A stretch of 37,855 nt of DNA, from contig CALXAO010000122.1 of NCBI GenBank assembly GCA_944386295.1, forward strand, positions 1 to 37,855, in the 5' to 3' direction. Source of the DNA: an uncultured Clostridia bacterium. Its GTDB lineage: Bacteria > Bacillota > Clostridia > Oscillospirales > UBA644. The translations under genes were made by a program, and so were the position numbers. This document shows positions 13,720-35,798 of the stretch, piece after piece. The notes beneath the pieces are model-generated. The model saw nothing but the letters and a program-made list of their open reading frames with translations. It made no database searches and was not told where the DNA came from. Within the stretch, counting starts at the first letter, position 1, and each line of letters begins with the position of its first letter.

Positions 13720-14899
13720 CAGGGTGGAACTACACAGCAACAGCATTTACTTTTTAAGTCCGAAGAGGATGTCCAGAAGCAGCAGCGGATTCAGAGCAGC
13801 CTTGAACATCAATTTTTTCTGCTGATACGCCTATATTTGGCTTTCTCGAGTAAAGCCAAGGTTGTTTTTCGCAAAACATTTATGTTCAGTGGAAAATTGT
13901 CTTTTCTTGCTCGCGCGGCATCTTCACGAAAGATCACATCCAAATTCCAATGAAGTTGGCTTTCAATCGACTAATGTTTCCGGACAGCATCGGCAAATTT
14001 CCCTACATTCGTCAGTGATGTGATGAAATATCGGGTATCCTCTCTGACTATATCTTTCTCGCACACATAGCTTTTAACCATTCCGATTCCATTCAAATTC
14101 GTCCATTTTTTCCGCTCTTCTTCCCAAGAAAGCTCTGTCAGCAGGAAATATGTCCTTCTTTCAAGCCGACCGTGATCTTTTTCCATTGTTTCGCAGGAAG
14201 GAAGTTCGTCGGTCATATTTTGAAAATACAGATCCACATCCCGATACATGGCAGGCTGATTTTCTTTCAGACTGATCACATAATCTGCCTTTTTCTCTGT
14301 AATTTTCTTTGTTATCTCTTTCTGATAACTCATTGCATCTGCTGTTACAATACATTCCTCTACGTTGATCAAATCAAGGAGCGCGGGAACAGCGGTAATT
14401 TCGTTGCTTTTTTCATCCACAACAATCTTTCCGAGTGTGATTTGATTTTCTGCGACAAATGCGATCACCACATGATATGCCTTATGTGCTGCATTTCCGC
14501 TTCCGCATATTGTTTTTCCATCAATTGCTACGGTCGAACGTTCCGTATAACTGTACAGGCATTCCGACAACTCTGCCGGTTCCAATCGCTCAAACAGTCG
14601 CCGAAAGGTATCGCTGTCCGGAATTCCGTTAGGCAATTCTAAAAAGGTTTGCAACCATTCTTCACCTTCACGACCAAACGCCTCCATATCGTTATCATCT
14701 TCTCCGTCGCAAACAATCGTGCACAAGCCTATGATGATTATGTCATCCAACTTATGCCGGATATTCCCATAACTTACTCGCCGTGGTTCTGTTATCTTTG
14801 TTATTGTCTCTTTTAATGTTGTTAGTTTCATGAGTTTATTTTACCATATCTTTTCAAAAAAGTAAATGCTGTTGCCGTGGATGGAACTATTCCACCCTG
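13720..14899 (-). mobile_element. ISAs1-family insertion sequence (inactive)
   Basis: About 1.18 kb. Its ends share CAGGGTGGAA in inverted orientation (13720-13729 and the complement at 14890-14899), and a second inverted match, CAACAGCATTTAC, lies about 20 bases further in on both sides. The transposase inside is broken. I see no convincing target-site duplication, and the right end abuts another decayed IS directly. Confidence 0.82.
13747..14831 (-). pseudogene. ISAs1-family (H-repeat-like) transposase, nonsense plus frameshift
   Basis: DDE transposase of the ISAs1 group: N-terminal RHKLDDIIIIGLCTIVCDGED, the IDGKTICGSG block with the first catalytic Asp, VTADAMSYQKEI with the second Asp, and the Y-x-E-type DHGRLERRTYF. 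The ORF stops at 13971-13973, where TAG replaces the Trp codon of the expected HWSIESQLHWNLDVIFREDA. The same frame continues with that family sequence. Near 13812-13817 a base seems lost from a run of A, shifting the frame; the C-terminus then reads KAALNPLLLLDILFGLKK and stops at 13747-13749. Restored length would be about 361 residues. Two independent lesions mean the element is dead. Confidence 0.85.
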
Positions 14900-24044: not shown

Positions 24045-25231
24045 ATGGAACAAAATAAAGGAGAAAAGCATCATGTCAACAACATAATTTTGCTCGGACT
24101 CGTAAGCTGTTTTGCGGATATTTCCGCAGAGATGGTATATCCGATTCTTCCTTTATACCTCACTGCGGTTTTAGGAGCTACTCCCGCCGTAGTCGGTGTT
24201 ATTGAAGGAATTGCAGAAAGCCTTTCAAGCCTTTTAAAAGTGTTCAGCGGATATCTCAGCGATAAATACAAGCGCAAGAAGCCCTTGGCGTTTATCAGAT
24301 ATGCCACCGGAGTTTTGTATAAGCTTTCACTTCTTTTTGCCGGCTCATGGTTAGGTATTTTAATTGCGAGAATTGTAGACCGCTTCGGCAAAGGTATTCG
24401 CACGGCGCCGAGAGATGTTATGGTTGCGGAAAGCGCAGAAAACGGGCATTTGGGCAAATCCTTCGGAATTCACAAAGCATTGGATATGCTCGGTTCTGCC
24501 GTCGGTATACTGCTCTCTTTTCTGATTTTGAAATTCATGGGCGATAACATACATTCCTATAAGATCGTATTTATTGTGTCTCTGATTCCGATTATTATTG
24601 CCCTGTCCTTCTTCCCGATGATTAAGGAGCGCAGGGACGCCCGCACGAATGATCCAAAAGAGAAATTTTGGAAGAACAAGGGAAGGCTTGGCGGACAACT
24701 AAAGCTGTATCTTGTGATTGTCACGCTTTTTACTTTGGGGAATTCCTCAAACTCCGCGCAAATTCTGTGGGAATTAATTCGATAGATGTGATTTTTCTTT
24801 ACTTTGTTTACAATGCCGTCGCTTCGCTTTTTTCCGTTCCAATAGGTAAGCTTTCCGACAGGGTGAGAAGAAAAAATATTTTTGTGTTCGGTTACCTTTT
24901 GTTCAGCGCAATATACCTGCTGTTTGGATTGGCGGATCGCACGGTCACGCTGATTTTGGGATTCGTTTTATATGGAATTTACACAGCCATGATTGCCGGA
25001 GTTGAACGGGCATTTATTGCAGAAATTGCACCCCCTCAAATGAAAGGTACAATGCTCGGACTTCATGGAACATTGGTAGGAATAGCCCTGCTTCCCGCAA
25101 GCGTAATAGCAGGACTTTTATGGGAACATATCGGAACATTTGCGCCGTTTTGTCGGCAATTGCTGCACTACTGTTATTATTCGGCTTAAATCAACAGGCA
25201 TATTTTTCTGAAAAAATTGATAAAACCATGT
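24045..25231 (+). pseudogene. MFS transporter, frameshifted twice
   Basis: The first frame (24045-24785) has the N-terminal six membrane segments, including the MFS loop motif SGYLSDKYKRKKP and RFGKGIRTAPRDVM. The sequence then changes frame near 24745, where a short deletion is likely. It continues as NSVGINSIDVIFLYFVYNAVASLFSVPIGKLSDRVRRKNIFVFGYLLF and VERAFIAEIAPPQMKGTMLGLHG. A second shift near 25140 gives AVLSAIAALLLLFGLNQQAYF and TGA at 25229-25231. It was probably an efflux pump of about 390 residues. Confidence 0.83.
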
Positions 25232-27456: not shown

Positions 27457-27496
27457 GTATTTGTATGATCTACCCATTAGAAAGTAAGGCGCCGTT

Positions 27497-27676
27497 ATGG
27501 ACAAGGATCTTGAAAGATGGCTCTCTATGAAAGAGATAACCGAGTACCTGGGCGTCAGCCGCGACCGTTACTTATGTGGATAAAAAATATCAAATGTCCA
27601 CCTTCTGCATTGGCAGACTGTGGAAATTCAAGCTCAGCGATGTGGACGCTGGATGAAGTTCTGTCAGGCAGTTAAT
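27497..27676 (+). pseudogene. Excisionase-type helix-turn-helix protein, frameshifted
   Basis: Begins MDKDLERWLSMKEITEYLGVSRD, the MerR/excisionase-like DNA-binding start. It then shifts frame to TYVDKKYQMSTFCIGRLWKFKLSDVDAWMKF, the second half of the same domain (xxxVGRLWKFxxSxVDxW). Small proteins of this sort often sit beside mobile or defence genes. Not functional as written. Confidence 0.75.
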
Positions 27677-27715
27677 TCAAATCAGTAATGCCTTGCCACG
27701 CTATGGTACAAGAAA

Positions 27716-27835
27716 ATAAAAAAAAGACCTCCGAAAAGGTCTTTTTTACGCACACGCTGTGCAATCGGCTGAGCCGACGGTTTGAGAATTCTTTTATTTG
27801 AACTCGTAGTGTAATTTATAAGGGATATAAACTAC
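27716..27835 (-). ncRNA. tracrRNA of the type II-A CRISPR system
   Basis: About 120 nt, antisense to the space before cas9. Going 5' to 3' on the minus strand: an anti-repeat (27832-27806) that is a degenerate complement of the CRISPR repeat with one base fewer in the T run; a GAGU bulge (27805-27802); and UCAAAU (27801-27796), which pairs with the first six bases of the crRNA repeat (GUUUGA). Next come a nexus-like hairpin UCGGC-UCA-GCCGA (27777-27765), a second hairpin GCACA-GCG-UGUGC (27762-27750), and the terminator. The GA/GAGU bulge geometry mirrors the known SpCas9 crRNA:tracrRNA duplex. It has its own consensus promoter. Confidence 0.92.
27720..27747. terminator. Terminator of the tracrRNA
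   Basis: Arms 27720-27730 and 27737-27747 (AAAAAAGACCT / AGGTCTTTTTT) with a 6-base loop. It is symmetric enough to stop both the tracrRNA on the minus strand and transcripts from the HTH remnant on the plus strand. Confidence 0.9.
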
Positions 27836-27841
27836 ATACTT

Positions 27842-27871: not shown

Positions 27872-30800
27872 ATGAATAAGAAAAAATATTATCTTGGTTT
27901 CGACATTGGAACAGATTCTGTGGGATACGCAGCAACCGATACACAGTATAATTTAATCAAATTTAAGGGTGAGCCTATGTGGGGGACTGTGCTTTTTGAT
28001 GAAGCACAGCTTGCGGTTGAGCGCAGAAGCTTTCGCACTGCTCGTAGAAGGCTTGACCGCAGACAGCAGAGAGTCCGTTTAATTATGGAGTTGTTTGCCC
28101 CTGAGGTCGGCAAGATAGACGAAGGTTATTTCAGGAGAATAAAAGAAAGCTATTATTATCCTGAAACCGACAACAATAAAATACGCTTGTTTGATACCTA
28201 TAAAGCGCAAAAAGAGTATGATGCCAAGTACCCTACAATTCACCATCTCATAGTTGAATTAATGCAGAGTACCGAAGCTCACGATATAAGACTCGTGTAT
28301 CTTGCCTGTGCTTGGCTTGTTGCGCACAGAGGTCATTTTCTCAACGAGGTAGACAAGCTTAATATAGAGGCGGTTACTGATTTTACGTCTGTGTATAATC
28401 AACTTGTAAGCTTTATTAAACACGATGAATATATGCTTCCATGGAAAGAGGACGTTGATCTCGAAATTGTTCAAAGCGTTCTGAAAAGCAAAACCGGCGT
28501 AACAAAGAAATTAAAAATGTTAAAGGAAGCACTGTTCGGAACAGCGAAAGTGCCCAAGGAAATAAATGAACAATATGAATTTAATTATGAGCTTGTTTTA
28601 AAACTACTTTGTGGCGGAAAGGTCGAACTCAAAGAGCTTTTCGGAAAGGAAGAATATGCTGAACTTGTGGAAAAATCTCTTGCTCTCAATATAGACGACG
28701 AAAAGCTGGCAGATATTATCCAAAGTATCAATGACGATTCTGAGTTGATTTTGGTTTTAAAATCGGTTTACGATTGGGCAATTTTGGTCGATGTTCTAAA
28801 AGGTAAGCGAACCGTCTCCGAAGCTAAAGTCGCAGTTTATGAGCAGCATAGACACGATTTGCAGCTATTAAAGCGGTTTATTAAAAAATATGCCGCAGAG
28901 GAATACAACAATATCTTTCGTTCCGAAGCGGTAAAAAACAATTATGTTGCTTATATAGGTAAAAACAAGGTATCAAATGACAATATCAAGGTAGCAAAAT
29001 CAACTAAAGAGGATTTTTGCAAGTATATTCTTTCTGTTGTAAAAGATATTGTTCCTGACCAAAATGATCGGAAAGATTACGATAATATGATTTCGCGCCT
29101 TGAAATCTTTGATTTTATGCCTAAGCAAGTGAATGGCGATAACCGTGTAATTCCCTATCAGCTTTATTGGTATGAGCTTAATAAAATTCTTGAAAATGCG
29201 AAGGAATATATAACATTTTTAAACAAAGAGGATGAAGACGGCGTTACAGGTGCAGAAAAAATATTGTCTGTATTTGAATTCAGAGTGCCTTACTATGTGG
29301 GACCGTTAAAGGAAAAATCAAATCCTAAGCTTAACCACTGGATGGTACGCAAAGCGCAGGGCAAAATTTATCCGTGGAATTTTGAAGATAAGGTTGACTT
29401 TGATAAAAGTGAGAATGCTTTTATTGCACGTATGACTAATTCATGTACTTATCTGCCGAATGAAGATGTTTTGCCGAAAAACTCGCTTGTATATTCTGCT
29501 TTTGAGGTTTTGAACGAGATAAACAATATAAAAATTAACAGCCGCGATATTCCGGTTTCCGTAAAGCAGGATATTTACAATAATGTTTTTATGCGGCATC
29601 AAAAGGTTACGGTAAAGCGTATAAGGGATTATCTTGTATCACGTAACCTTATTGAGGAAGAGGATATAATAAGTGGGCTTGATGTTACCGTCAAGTCTTC
29701 CCTTAAACCGTTTTTGCAATTCAAAAATCTTGTAAATAACGGATTTCTCAAAGATTCAGATGTAGAGGCTATTATAAGTAGAGCAACGTATTCCGAGGAA
29801 AAAGCAAGGTATTTAAACTGGTTGCGCCGAGAATATTCTTCTTTGCCGGAAACCGAGGTAAAATATATTTCAGGACTGAAATTCAAGGATTTCGGCAGAC
29901 TCTCAAGAAAGCTGCTCTGCGGCATCGAGGGAATAAATAAGGAAACGGGAGAAGCCTTTACCGTTATTCGTGCTATGTGGGAAACAAACTGTAATCTTAT
30001 GCAGCTGCTGTCTGACAAATTCACCTTCAAAGAAAATATAGATGAATATGTCAAGGAATACTACGCCCAAAATCCCAAAAGCCTTTCCGAGCGGCTTGAC
30101 GAAATGTATGTTTCGAATTCCGTGAAACGCCCCATAATTCGCACACTTGATATTTTAAAGGATGTAGTAAAGGTACAAGGCGGTGCGCCTGAGCGAATCT
30201 TTATTGAAATGGCAAGAGGAGCTAATGAAGACCTGAAAGGGAAACGCACAAAAACCAGACTTGCGCAGCTTTATGATCTTTACGATAAAATTGACACCGA
30301 GGAGGTCCGGCATTTAAGCAACCAGCTTGAGGAATGGGGCGATTCCGCACATAACAAGCTCCAAAGTGATAAGATTTACTTATATTTCCTTCAGCTCGGG
30401 AAGTGCCTATATACCGGAAAAAGCATAAATATTGAAACTGTTATCTCAGGCGACGGCACTTATAATATAGAGCATATTTACCCTCGCAGCTTTGTCAAAG
30501 ACGACAGCATTATAAATAACGAGATACTCGTAGACTCAAAGGCTAACGGCGATAAGAGTGACAGTTATCCCATAAGTTCGGATATTCAAACGAAAATGTG
30601 CGGATATTGGAAACAGTTAAATAAACTTGGCTTGCTCAGTGATGAAAAATACAAGCGATTAACCCGGACAACTCACTTTGCAGATGATGAAAAATTTGAG
30701 TTTATTAACCGTCAGCTGGTGGAAACACGCCAGTCCGCAAAGGTGGTTGCGACACTTTTAAAAGAGTTATATTCCAATACGGAGATCGTTTATGTAAAGG

Positions 30801-31954
30801 CAGGACTTGTTTTGGATTTCCGTAAGCAATTTGATTTTCTTAAATCCCGTCAGATCAACGACCTACACCACGCCAAAGACGCGTACCTTAATATAGCCGT
30901 CGGTAATGTTTGGCACTGCAAATTCAGCAGACAATTCTGGCGAAAAGATGCGACCAACAATGCAAAACCCGAGATAGTATTCACCCACCCCGTTATTTGT
31001 AATGGAAAAACGGTTTGGAATGGGGCTGCCGATAAAGACCGGGTAATAAGCATTGCAAAAAAGAACACGGCACATTTGACAAAATATGCTTTCTGCAGAA
31101 AGGGCGGCTTCTTTGACCAAATGCCCGTAAAGGCAGCAAAAGACTTAATTCCTTTGAAAAAAGACCGTCCTACGGAAATTTACGGCGGATACAACAAATC
31201 CACAGCAACATTCTTTGTTTTGGTAAGATATAAGGTTGCAAAAAAGAGCGATGTTGTGATAATGCCGGTCGAGCTTTTATATGCCGATAAATTTATTGCC
31301 GACGATGCATTTGCCGAGGAATATGCAAAACAAACCGTCGGACAAATTCTCAACAAGCCGATAGACAGTGTGGAATTTCTGCTGAATAAAAGAATTATAA
31401 AGGTCAATACAGTTCTTTCATTGAACAGCTTGAGAGTTTGCATTACAGGAAAATCGGGCGGTGGTAGGCAAATCGGCGTTTCGTGCTTAACTGCTTTCAA
31501 GACATCGTCGGAAAATGAAAGCTATATAAAACAACTTGAGTCCTTTGCAAACAAGAAAAAGAAAAACGAAAATATTGTATTCAGCGAAAAACATGACGGC
31601 ATATCCACAGAGAAAAATTCGGCTCTTTATGATCTTTATATTGAGAAGCTGCAAAGCATTCCGTATAAATACCGTCCGGCAAATCCCTGTGATACGCTTG
31701 TTAAAGGGAGAGATAAATTCAATGCGCTGTCCCCTGATAACCAAGTTGCGATTTTGTTGGCAATTCAGGGGTTGTTTGGCAGAGCTGTTAAAGCCGACTT
31801 TACCGCCATCGGCGGCGCAGCGTCTGCCGGTGTTGCCAAATTATCATCTTCCCTGTCAAACTGGAAAAAGAATTATACTGATGTCCGCATTATTGATACC
31901 TCTGCTTCGGGACTGTTTGAAACGGTTTCCGAAAACCTGTTTGATTTGCTATGA
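27872..31954 (+). CDS. cas9: Cas9, type II-A RNA-guided DNA endonuclease
   Basis: A 1360-residue effector that cuts double-stranded DNA matching the crRNA, guided by crRNA:tracrRNA. RuvC-I LGFDIGTDSVGYA puts the catalytic Asp at residue 11. The Arg-rich bridge helix RRSFRTARRRLDRRQQRVR is at 51-69, followed by an alpha-helical recognition lobe to about 755. RuvC-II RIFIEMARG has Glu779. The HNH block NIEHIYPRSF / DDSIINNEIL / ANGDKSD has His868, Asn883 and Asn892. RuvC-III DLHHAKDAYLN has His1000 and Asp1003. The C-terminal part holds YGGYNKSTATFFVLVRY and a PAM-interacting domain ending [14 protein letters not shown]. Catalytic residues are all present, so it should be active. The ATG follows AGGGGG by about 10 bases, and the stop overlaps cas1 as ATGA. 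Confidence 0.98.
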   Translation: MNKKKYYLGFDIGTDSVGYAATDTQYNLIKFKGEPMWGTVLFDEAQLAVERRSFRTARRRLDRRQQRVRLIMELFAPEVGKIDEGYFRRIKESYYYPETDNNKIRLFDTYKAQKEYDAKYPTIHHLIVELMQSTEAHDIRLVYLACAWLVAHRGHFLNEVDKLNIEAVTDFTSVYNQLVSFIKHDEYMLPWKEDVDLEIVQSVLKSKTGVTKKLKMLKEALFGTAKVPKEINEQYEFNYELVLKLLCGGKVELKELFGKEEYAELVEKSLALNIDDEKLADIIQSINDDSELILVLKSVYDWAILVDVLKGKRTVSEAKVAVYEQHRHDLQLLKRFIKKYAAEEYNNIFRSEAVKNNYVAYIGKNKVSNDNIKVAKSTKEDFCKYILSVVKDIVPDQNDRKDYDNMISRLEIFDFMPKQVNGDNRVIPYQLYWYELNKILENAKEYITFLNKEDEDGVTGAEKILSVFEFRVPYYVGPLKEKSNPKLNHWMVRKAQGKIYPWNFEDKVDFDKSENAFIARMTNSCTYLPNEDVLPKNSLVYSAFEVLNEINNIKINSRDIPVSVKQDIYNNVFMRHQKVTVKRIRDYLVSRNLIEEEDIISGLDVTVKSSLKPFLQFKNLVNNGFLKDSDVEAIISRATYSEEKARYLNWLRREYSSLPETEVKYISGLKFKDFGRLSRKLLCGIEGINKETGEAFTVIRAMWETNCNLMQLLSDKFTFKENIDEYVKEYYAQNPKSLSERLDEMYVSNSVKRPIIRTLDILKDVVKVQGGAPERIFIEMARGANEDLKGKRTKTRLAQLYDLYDKIDTEEVRHLSNQLEEWGDSAHNKLQSDKIYLYFLQLGKCLYTGKSINIETVISGDGTYNIEHIYPRSFVKDDSIINNEILVDSKANGDKSDSYPISSDIQTKMCGYWKQLNKLGLLSDEKYKRLTRTTHFADDEKFEFINRQLVETRQSAKVVATLLKELYSNTEIVYVKAGLVLDFRKQFDFLKSRQINDLHHAKDAYLNIAVGNVWHCKFSRQFWRKDATNNAKPEIVFTHPVICNGKTVWNGAADKDRVISIAKKNTAHLTKYAFCRKGGFFDQMPVKAAKDLIPLKKDRPTEIYGGYNKSTATFFVLVRYKVAKKSDVVIMPVELLYADKFIADDAFAEEYAKQTVGQILNKPIDSVEFLLNKRIIKVNTVLSLNSLRVCITGKSGGGRQIGVSCLTAFKTSSENESYIKQLESFANKKKKNENIVFSEKHDGISTEKNSALYDLYIEKLQSIPYKYRPANPCDTLVKGRDKFNALSPDNQVAILLAIQGLFGRAVKADFTAIGGAASAGVAKLSSSLSNWKKNYTDVRIIDTSASGLFETVSENLFDLL

Positions 31955-32820
31955 GTTGGCGTACGGTTATTATAACTTCCCGTTGCAAGCTGGATTATAA
32001 AATGGGTTATATGATAGTTCGTGCCGAGGAGACAAAAAAGATATTTCTTGACGAAATTGCCGTATTACTCATTGAAAATCCAGCTGTGGCGCTGACCGGC
32101 TGTCTGATTGAAGCATTGACGGAAAAGAAAATCCGCGTGATTTTTTGCGATGCAAAACGAACACCCAACGCAGAGCTTGTGCCTTATTACAATTCCTATG
32201 ACTGCTCCCGAAAAATCAAGGCGCAGATTGCGTGGTCAGATGACATTAAGGGAATTGTTTGGGCGGATATTGTAGCGGAAAAAATCAGAAAACAGGCTGA
32301 TTTCCTAAATGATTTACATTGTTGTGATGAGGCTCAGCTGCTGCGCACATATCTTTTTGAGATTACTCCTCACGATACCGCCAATCGTGAGGGACACGCC
32401 GCAAAGGTTTATTTCAATGCTCTTTTCGGAATGGATTTTACAAGAAGCGAGGAAAACATAACCAACGCGGCTCTTAATTACGGTTACGGTATTATTCTGT
32501 CCGCGTTTAACCGAGAAATTGTTGCTCACGGTTATTTGACGCAGCTGGGAATTTTTCACGATAATATGTTTAACCATTTTAATTTGAGCTGCGATTTGAT
32601 GGAGCCGTTCCGGATACTGATAGACCGCAGGGTAAAAGCTATGCGGCTTAATGATTTTTTAAGCGAGGAAAAGCATACGTTGGTTGACGTTTTAAATGAT
32701 ACCGTTACCGTCAATAACAGCCGTCAGACCGTGCTTAATGCAATAAAATACTATTGCAGAAGCGTCTTTGACGCACTGAATGAAGGCGATTTATCGCTGA
32801 TACGGTTCTATTCATTATGA
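31951..32820 (+). CDS. cas1: Cas1 integrase, type II
   Basis: A 289-residue subunit of the spacer-integration complex. Metal ligands are visible: Glu in [12 protein letters not shown] (about residue 147), His in [16 protein letters not shown] (about residue 203) and Glu in [11 protein letters not shown] (about residue 218). The N-terminus ([24 protein letters not shown]) is the usual beta-rich domain of II-A Cas1. Coupled to cas9 upstream and cas2 downstream by 4-base ATGA overlaps. Confidence 0.97.
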
Positions 32821-33137
32821 GTTACAGATTTATGAGAGTGTTGGTGTTTTTTGATCTTCCTACCGAAACGGCAGAAGACAAGCGTGAATACAGAAAATTT
32901 CGGAAATTGCTGATTAAAAACGGATTTTTGATGATGCAGGAATCGGTTTATTGCCGTATGCTTTTAACACCGAGTGCGGGTAGTTTGGTTTTGAATGTAA
33001 TACGAAAGAACCGTCCTGCGCGGGGGATAGTTCAAGTGATGACAGTTACCGAAAAGCAATTTGCAGGTATGGAATACATCACTGGCGAGCATCATAGCGA
33101 AGTGATAGAAAGCGACGAGAGGCTGATTATACTATGA
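32817..33137 (+). CDS. cas2: Cas2, type II
   Basis: A 106-residue protein with the ferredoxin-like Cas2 start [14 protein letters not shown] (Asp of the DLP motif), [25 protein letters not shown] and a C-terminal [15 protein letters not shown]. It bridges two Cas1 dimers during spacer integration. ATGA overlaps at both ends. Confidence 0.97.
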
Positions 33138-33799
33138 AACTGGTGTATAAGGATATGGGGCACATTCTCAGTTTTGACGGCGGATATGTCAATGAATTGG
33201 TAATCGAAAATAAAAAATTGTTTTTCGAAACGGTAAACAGTGTGATTATGCAAACGGATGGTATCCCCGGGAATTGGGTGCTTTCGGTTGCGGATAAGCC
33301 GGTCGAATTACACCAATATGCGGATGTAACGATCCAATTTGCTCCGTTTCAAGTAAACCGAAAAAGTCTGCTAACTAAGCTGTATAACGCTATTGAACAA
33401 AAATCGGTCAACGTAGAAAATTATATAAAAACAAGCACTCTGATTTGTGAATTGGAAAAATATATTTTACAGCTTGCCGAAGATCTCCCGTTTGAGCTTA
33501 ATTGTAAAAATACGGCAATGGGACCGTTAATTCGCGCCCTGGCTCTGGAAATAGAAGAGGCTGATAAAAGTCCTCTTGAAAGGATATTTGCCTATATGGA
33601 GCTGGTACGTGAGCTTGATCGCGACCGACTTTTTGTTATGGTCAATATGCGTTCGTATTTTTCAGATAAAGATATGAATGAATTTACAAAAAGCGCCTGT
33701 CTGCATGATTTCAAAGTGCTTTTGCTGGGTAATGTCTCTGAAACAAGATTAGAAAACGCGAAAAGATATACAGTTGATGCCGATTTATGTGAGTTTTGA
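33134..33799 (+). CDS. csn2: Csn2, type II-A adaptation protein
   Basis: A 221-residue protein, the length of canonical (short) Csn2, which forms a tetrameric ring on DNA ends and is needed for adaptation. Characteristic parts: a beta-rich N-terminus ([22 protein letters not shown]) and a C-terminal [37 protein letters not shown], then [11 protein letters not shown]. Its presence makes the locus subtype II-A. Translation is coupled to cas2. Confidence 0.93.
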
Positions 33800-33800
33800 C

Positions 33801-33829
33801 TTGATTTTCAGGTCATTTTGTTGTATAAT
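33801..33829 (+). promoter_or_regulatory. CRISPR leader promoter
   Basis: TTGATT (33801-33806), 17 bases, TATAAT (33824-33829), just after the csn2 stop and reading into the array. Predicted transcript start is near 33836, about 60 bases before the first repeat. Confidence 0.82.
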
Positions 33830-33897
33830 ATAAGTAAGAAGTCCCAGAGCCCTGCTTTCAGCAATTCGTAGTATTGTTTCTCAAATAGTGATTTGAG
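33830..33897 (+). promoter_or_regulatory. CRISPR leader end with ATTTGAG anchor
   Basis: The leader ends in ATTTGAG (33891-33897), directly touching repeat 1. This is the leader-anchoring sequence reported for streptococcal II-A systems, where it directs new spacers to the first repeat. Here it is also one arm of a perfect inverted repeat CTCAAAT-AGTG-ATTTGAG (33880-33897). Confidence 0.72.
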
Positions 33898-35777
33898 GTT
33901 TGAGAGTAGTGTAATTTTATAAGGGACTTAAACCAAGAACGACCGAATCTGATATTCCAGATAGTTTGAGAGTAGTGTAATTTTATAAGGGACTTAAACT
34001 AGAAACCACGCAAAGCAGCCTAACACTAAGTTTGAGAGTAGTGTAATTTTATAAGGGACTTAAACCAGTCCCGTTAGCATCATACAATGTATAAAGTTTG
34101 AGAGTAGTGTAATTTTATAAGGGACTTAAACGCATCATGAAAAAGTAAGTCAATTCTTCCGGTTTGAGAGTAGTGTAATTTTATAAGGGACTTAAACATA
34201 TCCAAACACTCCCATTAACATTCGTTGGTTTGAGAGTAGTGTAATTTTATAAGGGACTTAAACGTTGATGAAGCGACCTTGTTCGCAGATTGTGTTTGAG
34301 AGTAGTGTAATTTTATAAGGGACTTAAACGGAACATATCAGCTATGCCAATTACCAAAGAGTTTGAGAGTAGTGTAATTTTATAAGGGACTTAAACTGAA
34401 TCAGAGACCTCTTGATATGTACCAGGTTTGAGAGTAGTGTAATTTTATAAGGGACTTAAACAATCGCATCTGTAATGCCGATGCATCATGAGTTTGAGAG
34501 TAGTGTAATTTTATAAGGGACTTAAACTCGGCGATGGACAGACAGCATGGCGGGCAAGTTTGAGAGTAGTGTAATTTTATAAGGGACTTAAACAATGAAA
34601 AAGACCATCACCGCCAATTATGCGTTTGAGAGTAGTGTAATTTTATAAGGGACTTAAACGTTGAGGAACCATGCAAAACAGCCCAACGCGTTTGAGAGTA
34701 GTGTAATTTTATAAGGGACTTAAACAAGAAATCAAAAAAAGAATGACAAAAACGAGTTTGAGAGTAGTGTAATTTTATAAGGGACTTAAACCAAAGTAGG
34801 CGGCATCCTTGCGGCGGGTTTGTTTGAGAGTAGTGTAATTTTATAAGGGACTTAAACGAATACCAAAAGCGATCATTGTTCCTAAGGTTTGAGAGTAGTG
34901 TAATTTTATAAGGGACTTAAACATCCTGTTACAGAACCACGGACTGGATCGCGTTTGAGAGTAGTGTAATTTTATAAGGGACTTAAACATCCGTCCGTTT
35001 ATATGACGGGGGAATATGGTTTGAGAGTAGTGTAATTTTATAAGGGACTTAAACCAGTTCTTTGATTCCGTTGACAAAAGAATGGTTTGAGAGTAGTGTA
35101 ATTTTATAAGAGACTTAAACGAGGACCGATGACATCCTGCATATCCGAATGTTTGAGAGTAGTGTAATTTTATAAGGGACTTAAACCACCCACAACCCAT
35201 CGGTCAACGTCAGCGTGTTTGAGAGTAGTGTAATTTTATAAGGGACTTAAACGTTTCCGATGTGTTTTCCTTCGACACGGAAGTTTGAGAGTAGTGTAAT
35301 TTTATAAGGGACTTAAACGAACACGTACGTGTAACCCTCCCCCAAAAAGTTTGAGAGTAGTGTAATTTTATAAGGGACTTAAACATAGAATTAACGATAG
35401 AAGTCATCGCCTGTGTTTGAGAGTAGTGTAATTTTATAAGGGACTTAAACGACTGAATCGAAAAACTGGGTAAAATAAAGTTTGAGAGTAGTGTAATTTT
35501 ATAAGGGACTTAAACACACCGAGGTGGTTGTCTTGAGTTCTATAAGTTTGAGAGTAGTGTAATTTTATAAGGGACTTAAACAGCTGACCATGGCCATTGA
35601 TCGCTTATGTGTTTGAGAGTAGTGTAATTTTATAAGGGACTTAAACAAAAACAGATCTAACAACTAACGTATCCAAGTTTGAGAGTAGTGTAATTTTATA
35701 AGGGACTTAAACAACAGGCATTACCGTTATATGAACCCATAGGTTTGAGAGTAGTGTAATTTTTTTATGGCTTTAAC
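33898..35777 (+). CRISPR. Type II-A CRISPR array, 29 repeats and 28 spacers
   Basis: Repeat unit is 36 bases, beginning GTTTGAGAGTAGTGTAATTT and ending TATAAGGGACTTAAAC; first copy 33898-33933. Repeats start every 65-67 bases (33898, 33964, 34030 ... 35677, 35743) and spacers are 29-31 bases, mostly 30. All standard repeats look identical except one at 35085-35120 with a single G-to-A change (AAGAGAC). The last, 35743-35777, is decayed after its first 20 bases, as expected at the distal end. Transcription is plus strand from the leader promoter. No spacer was seen to match this window. Confidence 0.99.
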
Positions 35778-35798
35778 AATCCCCCATCATTGTTTTTT
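35775..35798. terminator. Weak hairpin with T run after the array
   Basis: AACAAT (35775-35780) and ATTGTT (35789-35794) followed by T residues. It may end the pre-crRNA transcript; the stem is short. Confidence 0.35.

What the first reader, a model, noticed from the sequence alone, without database searches (positions are those of the whole stretch)
34000..34689. Two spacers encode the same peptide with only synonymous differences
Spacer 2 (34000-34029) and spacer 12 (34660-34689) align over 24 bases (34001-34024 and 34664-34687). They differ at four sites, each a transition at a codon third position: AGA/AGG, CAC/CAT, AAG/AAA, CCT/CCC. Both read Arg-Asn-His-Ala-Lys-Gln-Pro-Asn in the same orientation, offset by 3 bases within the spacer. 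This is what separate acquisitions from diverged homologues of one conserved phage or plasmid gene would give. It also says which strand of the target is coding and offers a bait peptide for finding the invader family.
Basis: partly seen in the sequence, partly recalled or inferred. Interest (0 to 1): 0.82.

Follow-up and report, generated by a model that had tools for sequence, protein, structure and literature searches.

The report
Two CRISPR memories of one gene

Summary
Spacer 2 (34000-34029) and spacer 12 (34660-34689) match at 20 of 24 bases, and the four differences are third-position transitions in one frame. No other spacer pair in the array comes close. Dinucleotide shuffles match this score in 10 of 20,990 trials, before the codon phasing is counted.

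The array is an intact type II-A CRISPR-Cas locus (cas9-cas1-cas2-csn2, tracrRNA, 29 repeats). The best explanation is two separate acquisitions from diverged copies of one coding site. Among 28 comparison type II-A arrays, three hold near-identical, non-duplicate spacer pairs whose differences are silent in one frame. A fourth holds spacers from a repeat-rich gene. The phenomenon is therefore recurrent, and a published Legionella case is close.

One inference fails. The opposite strand uses the same wobble columns and reads LGCFAWFL, with five silent changes, so the pair does not show which strand is coding. The bait search also failed: no credible protospacer was found in IMG/VR, GTDB genomes, phages, plasmids, relatives or the host genome. 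The PAM and invader remain unknown. The one oddity is that the two PAM-side ends differ by exactly one codon.

The parts
34000..34029 (+). spacer 2 (newer, second from the leader side); its first 27 bases overlap the homologous site in spacer 12
34660..34689 (+). spacer 12 (older); bases 34663-34689 align with 34000-34026
33898..35778 (+). CRISPR array: 29 repeats of 36 bp (GTTTGAGAGTAGTGTAATTTTATAAGGGACTTAAAC), 28 spacers of 29-31 bp; last repeat (35743) degenerate, repeat at 35085 has one change
33800..33897 (+). presumed leader between csn2 and first repeat
   Evidence: position, with the decayed repeat at the opposite end; inference
27872..31954 (+). cas9 (1360 aa)
   Evidence: TIGR01865 844.6 bits and Pfam REC, PI, HNH, RuvC, bridge helix; closest solved Cas9 9jwk
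31951..32820 (+). cas1 (type II)
   Evidence: TIGR03639 293.2 bits
32817..33137 (+). cas2
   Evidence: TIGR01573 72.3 bits
33134..33799 (+). csn2
   Evidence: TIGR01866 143.3 bits, the type II-A marker
27721..27840 (-). predicted tracrRNA: anti-repeat near 27797-27832, ending at the hairpin and T run near 27721-27749
   Evidence: anti-repeat match, sequence read; ends are inferred

Best explanation
Spacers 2 and 12 are two separate type II-A acquisitions from diverged homologous copies of the same short coding site in related invaders (phage or plasmid). Spacer 12 was taken first. Later a relative with mostly silent changes arrived. Spacer 12 mismatches the spacer-2 version at positions 2, 6, 12, 18, 24 and 27 from its PAM-side end, so Cas9 guided by spacer 12 probably cut it poorly. 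The adaptation machinery (Cas1-Cas2-Csn2 with Cas9) then took spacer 2 from nearly the same place, 3 bases further along. Shown here: the similarity, the codon phasing, the array order and the system type. Inferred: the invader, the failed cutting, and re-acquisition from an escaping relative. The coding strand is undecided.
For: The 20/24 match is unique in the array and rare in shuffles (10 of 20,990). Differences are codon-phased and silent. Spacer ends differ by 3 bases and the outer bases do not match, which argues against a simple copied unit. A complete II-A locus surrounds it. Among 29 II-A arrays with 452 spacers, three other arrays hold non-identical pairs: L119 24/53 (26/31 identical, 5 of 5 differences in one phase), L088 15/18 (28/30, 2 of 2), L083 3/9 (28/29). 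All are silent and open in the crRNA-sense reading. The phase test over the four pairs gives p = 7e-5, and L119 plus L088 alone give 0.0018. Published precedent: Legionella type I-C holds two pairs of spacers against overlapping regions of LME-1 in which the older one mismatches PAM or seed and the newer one is perfect (PMC5071653).
Against: No protospacer was found for either spacer, so no homologous genes have been seen. The two PAM-side ends differ by 3 bases, whereas the comparison pairs share that end, so this pair needs two PAMs 3 bases apart or a one-codon indel. The source could also be two copies within one invader.
Confidence: 0.8

Rival explanations
1. The two spacers come from two paralogous or internally repeated stretches in one and the same invader, not from two related invaders.
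For: This appears to happen in a comparison array: L079 spacers 4, 11, 19 and 21 resemble each other on both strands and read as a repeat such as VSGNAEVYG.
Against: Neither RNHAKQPN nor LGCFAWFL looks repetitive, and only one such pair occurs in the window array.
Confidence: 0.13
2. A spacer was duplicated within the array and then diverged by mutation or recombination.
For: Exact duplicate spacers do occur in comparison arrays (L087, L115, L116, L120, L125).
Against: The two are shifted by 3 bases with unrelated ends, and the differences are codon-phased, which non-coding array DNA has no reason to show. Duplicates elsewhere are exact.
Confidence: 0.03
3. Chance similarity between two unrelated spacers.
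For: 378 pairs in two orientations were available; shuffles reach the score about 5 times in 10,000.
Against: The codon phasing and the mostly transitional changes are independent of the score and multiply its rarity; similar phased pairs recur elsewhere.
Confidence: 0.02

Closest known systems
Overlapping spacers against diverged versions of one mobile element (Legionella pneumophila type I-C versus LME-1, PMC5071653)
   Same: Two spacers in one array target overlapping sites of one element; the older one carries mismatches, the newer one is a better match.
   Different: There the system is type I-C, the element is sequenced and escape of diverged protospacers was tested in a related strain; here the system is type II-A and the element is unknown.
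Primed adaptation in type II-A (Streptococcus mutans P42S, PMC8265633)
   Same: Type II-A; a native spacer with four mismatches to the phage, and new spacers often near earlier targets (about 10% within 500 bp).
   Different: Laboratory infection with a known phage; distances of up to kilobases are reported, not the same site in a diverged relative.
Slipped or shifted spacers in type II-A (PMC10415147)
   Same: Spacers taken from nearly the same place with a shifted PAM.
   Different: A shift of one base in the same genome; here 3 bases, with diverged sequence.
FrCas9 locus of Faecalibaculum rodentium (PMC8931148)
   Same: cas9, cas1, cas2, csn2 with an array, and a tracrRNA upstream of cas9 on the opposite strand; the closest solved Cas9 here is a 1372-aa protein (9jwk) that I believe, from memory, to be FrCas9.
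   Different: Only moderately similar in sequence; its NNTA PAM cannot be assumed here.

Membership tests
Type II-A CRISPR-Cas | cas9, cas1, cas2 and the II-A marker csn2 in one operon | tested here: met
   TIGR01865, TIGR03639, TIGR01573 and TIGR01866 all above curated cut-offs
Type II-A CRISPR-Cas | 36-bp repeats with about 30-bp spacers next to the operon | tested here: met
   29 repeats, 28 spacers
Type II-A CRISPR-Cas | tracrRNA with anti-repeat | tested here: met
   Anti-repeat at 27797-27832 by sequence; expression not tested; Rfam gave no match
Separate acquisitions from diverged homologous protospacers | similar spacers beyond chance with codon-phased silent differences | tested here: met
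Separate acquisitions from diverged homologous protospacers | homologous invader genes carrying each protospacer | tested here: inconclusive
   No credible protospacer for the pair in IMG/VR, GTDB genome contigs, GenBank phages, plasmids, relatives or own genome
Primed (target-guided) adaptation | new spacer acquired because an older, imperfect spacer bound nearby | not testable with these tools
   Needs infection experiments; the order of the spacers is compatible
   Forward 4 silent and 0 replacement; reverse 5 silent and 1 replacement; both frames open

The most novel reading that the evidence does not exclude
Type II-A adaptation returns to the same site when a diverged relative arrives: an older, mismatched Cas9 guide steers new acquisition onto its own imperfect target. 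In 4 of 29 arrays, diverged non-repeat pairs lie on the same strand, three sharing the exact PAM-side end and this one shifted by one codon.
Probability: 0.12. Interest if true: 0.6.

Novelty: new member of a known kind. Interest (0 to 1): 0.3.

Why it matters
Pairs like this record repeated encounters with one invader family without the invader being known, and they carry codon information about an unseen target gene. They occur in about one in seven II-A arrays in this small sample, so they could be mined in bulk to ask whether adaptation re-uses the same sites. This single pair is ordinary.

Tried and rejected
IMG/VR patterns: third-position-degenerate core (6 hits), union pattern (1 hit), reverse peptide LGCFAWFL (4 hits) and forward peptide RNHAKQPN (10 hits). 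I read the hits in context and reject them: wrong frame, no match beyond the core, or not a credible open frame. The ten forward hits are one viral family reading AREIMQNNPML in another frame.

GTDB genome contigs: 7 hits to the 24-base core, all in unrelated organisms and mostly with the wobble frame not the apparent gene.

BLAST of the pair against phages, and of 27 of the 28 spacers (low-complexity spacer 13 left out) against phages and plasmids: no match. Against 394 genomes of the order: best off-target E about 0.02 per genome, consistent with chance across that many genomes; the two examined in detail lie by housekeeping genes. IMG/VR for spacers 1 and 10: none; spacer 25 gave two 19-mer matches that fail outside the 19 bases.

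Positive control, by seeking the L119 pair's target in IMG/VR and the comparison pairs' targets in phages: none. So the collections hold few invaders of these hosts, and missing hits say little.

The regular six-base spacing of the four differences was considered; given one codon phase it is a mild coincidence and was not pursued.

Full report
What is there. The window holds a complete type II-A CRISPR-Cas locus: cas9 27872-31954, cas1 31951-32820, cas2 32817-33137, csn2 33134-33799, identified by curated models. A tracrRNA anti-repeat lies just upstream of cas9 on the minus strand. The array runs from 33898 to 35778 with 29 repeats and 28 spacers; the last repeat is decayed, so the leader is on the csn2 side and spacer 2 is younger than spacer 12 (with the usual rule that new spacers enter at the leader end).

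The observation. Spacers 2 and 12 match at 20 of 24 bases, exactly as described. Over the full 27-base overlap, 21 match; differences are at overlap positions 0, 3, 9, 15, 21 and 25, five in one codon phase and five of six transitions. The pair scores 16, the next best pair 11. Shuffles preserving dinucleotides reach 16 in 10 of 20,990. The phase pattern has p about 0.02 by itself. Combined, chance is very unlikely.

The strand. They do not. On the complementary strand, the frame that shares the wobble columns reads VLGCFAWFL / ALGCFAWFL, with 5 silent differences and one replacement. A third-position transition that is silent on one strand is silent on the other with probability 0.96. Codon-usage likelihoods from this window's own genes differ by less than one log unit and favour the reverse. 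Against that, type II-A spacers show a 59% bias to the template strand, meaning that the crRNA reads as sense (PMC8482600), and the three comparison pairs are all fully silent and open in the sense reading, while their reverse readings carry replacements or a stop.

How ordinary is it? I collected csn2-linked loci from genomes of the same order, class and phylum, fetched the neighbourhoods and extracted arrays: 29 arrays, 452 spacers including this one. Three other arrays hold a non-identical pair well above chance. L119 24/53 match at 26 of 31, with five differences all in one phase, reading SDGSCRIRFF. L088 15/18 match at 28 of 30, both differences in one phase, GEYPDMNYF. L083 3/9 match at 28 of 29, DDYDSLPAL. 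A joint phase test gives p = 7e-5; L119 and L088 without this window give 0.0018. Another array, L079, holds four related spacers on both strands that read as a GNA-type repeat protein, showing how one repetitive gene could also give such pairs. Five arrays have exact duplicate spacers, which are best read as array duplications. So phased pairs are a recurrent by-product of CRISPR memory in this group.

Mechanism. Spacer 12 mismatches the spacer-2 version at positions 2, 6, 12, 18, 24 and 27 from its PAM-side end. From general knowledge of Cas9, mismatches at 2, 6 and 12 together should weaken cutting strongly. A relative carrying the spacer-2 version would thus escape, and a new spacer would be selected. 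The Legionella LME-1 study describes the same logic, with older spacers mismatching and newer ones perfect (PMC5071653). Priming is also reported in type II-A (PMC8265633). Whether the old spacer helped to choose the new site cannot be told here.

The one odd point. In the four comparison pairs, L079 19/21 included, the PAM-side ends coincide (difference 0), while in this pair they differ by exactly 3 bases. Either two PAMs lie 3 bases apart, or one homologue has a one-codon insertion or deletion between the shared core and a shared PAM. Protospacers would decide.

The bait. Degenerate patterns covering both peptide readings and the core were scanned over IMG/VR, GTDB genome contigs, the host's own genome and 197 genomes of relatives, and BLAST was run over phage and plasmid records. 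All matches outside the array look like chance. Other spacers of the array, and the comparison pairs, also had no target, so invaders of these bacteria are poorly represented.

Verdict. The finding is a new example of a known kind.

Noticed in passing
L119 (G589), spacers 24 and 53: A cleaner example than the given one: 26 of 31 identical, five differences all in one codon phase, and transversions that do separate the strands (sense reading SDGSCRIRFF fully silent).
   Followed up: partly
L079 (G286), spacers 4, 11, 19, 21: Four spacers against what reads as a GNA-type repeat protein, taken from both strands; a repetitive gene targeted several times.
   Followed up: partly
L125 (G765), spacers 4-7 and 8-11: A block of four spacers is exactly duplicated in tandem.
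   Followed up: no
24045-25189: A transporter-like gene split into two overlapping open frames (24045-24785 and 24668-25189), which looks like a frameshift.
   Followed up: no
27460-27700: Remains of what looks like a small helix-turn-helix gene (MDKDLERWLSMKEITEYLGVSRD...) with a broken frame, just upstream of the tracrRNA.
   Followed up: no
13971-14831: DDE transposase of the DDE_Tnp_1 family with its associated N-terminal domain, apparently short (286 aa; the Pfam match covers only part of the DDE domain).
   Followed up: no
35085-35120 and 35743-35778: Repeat 19 carries a single change (GGGACT to GAGACT) and the final repeat is decayed in its second half.
   Followed up: yes
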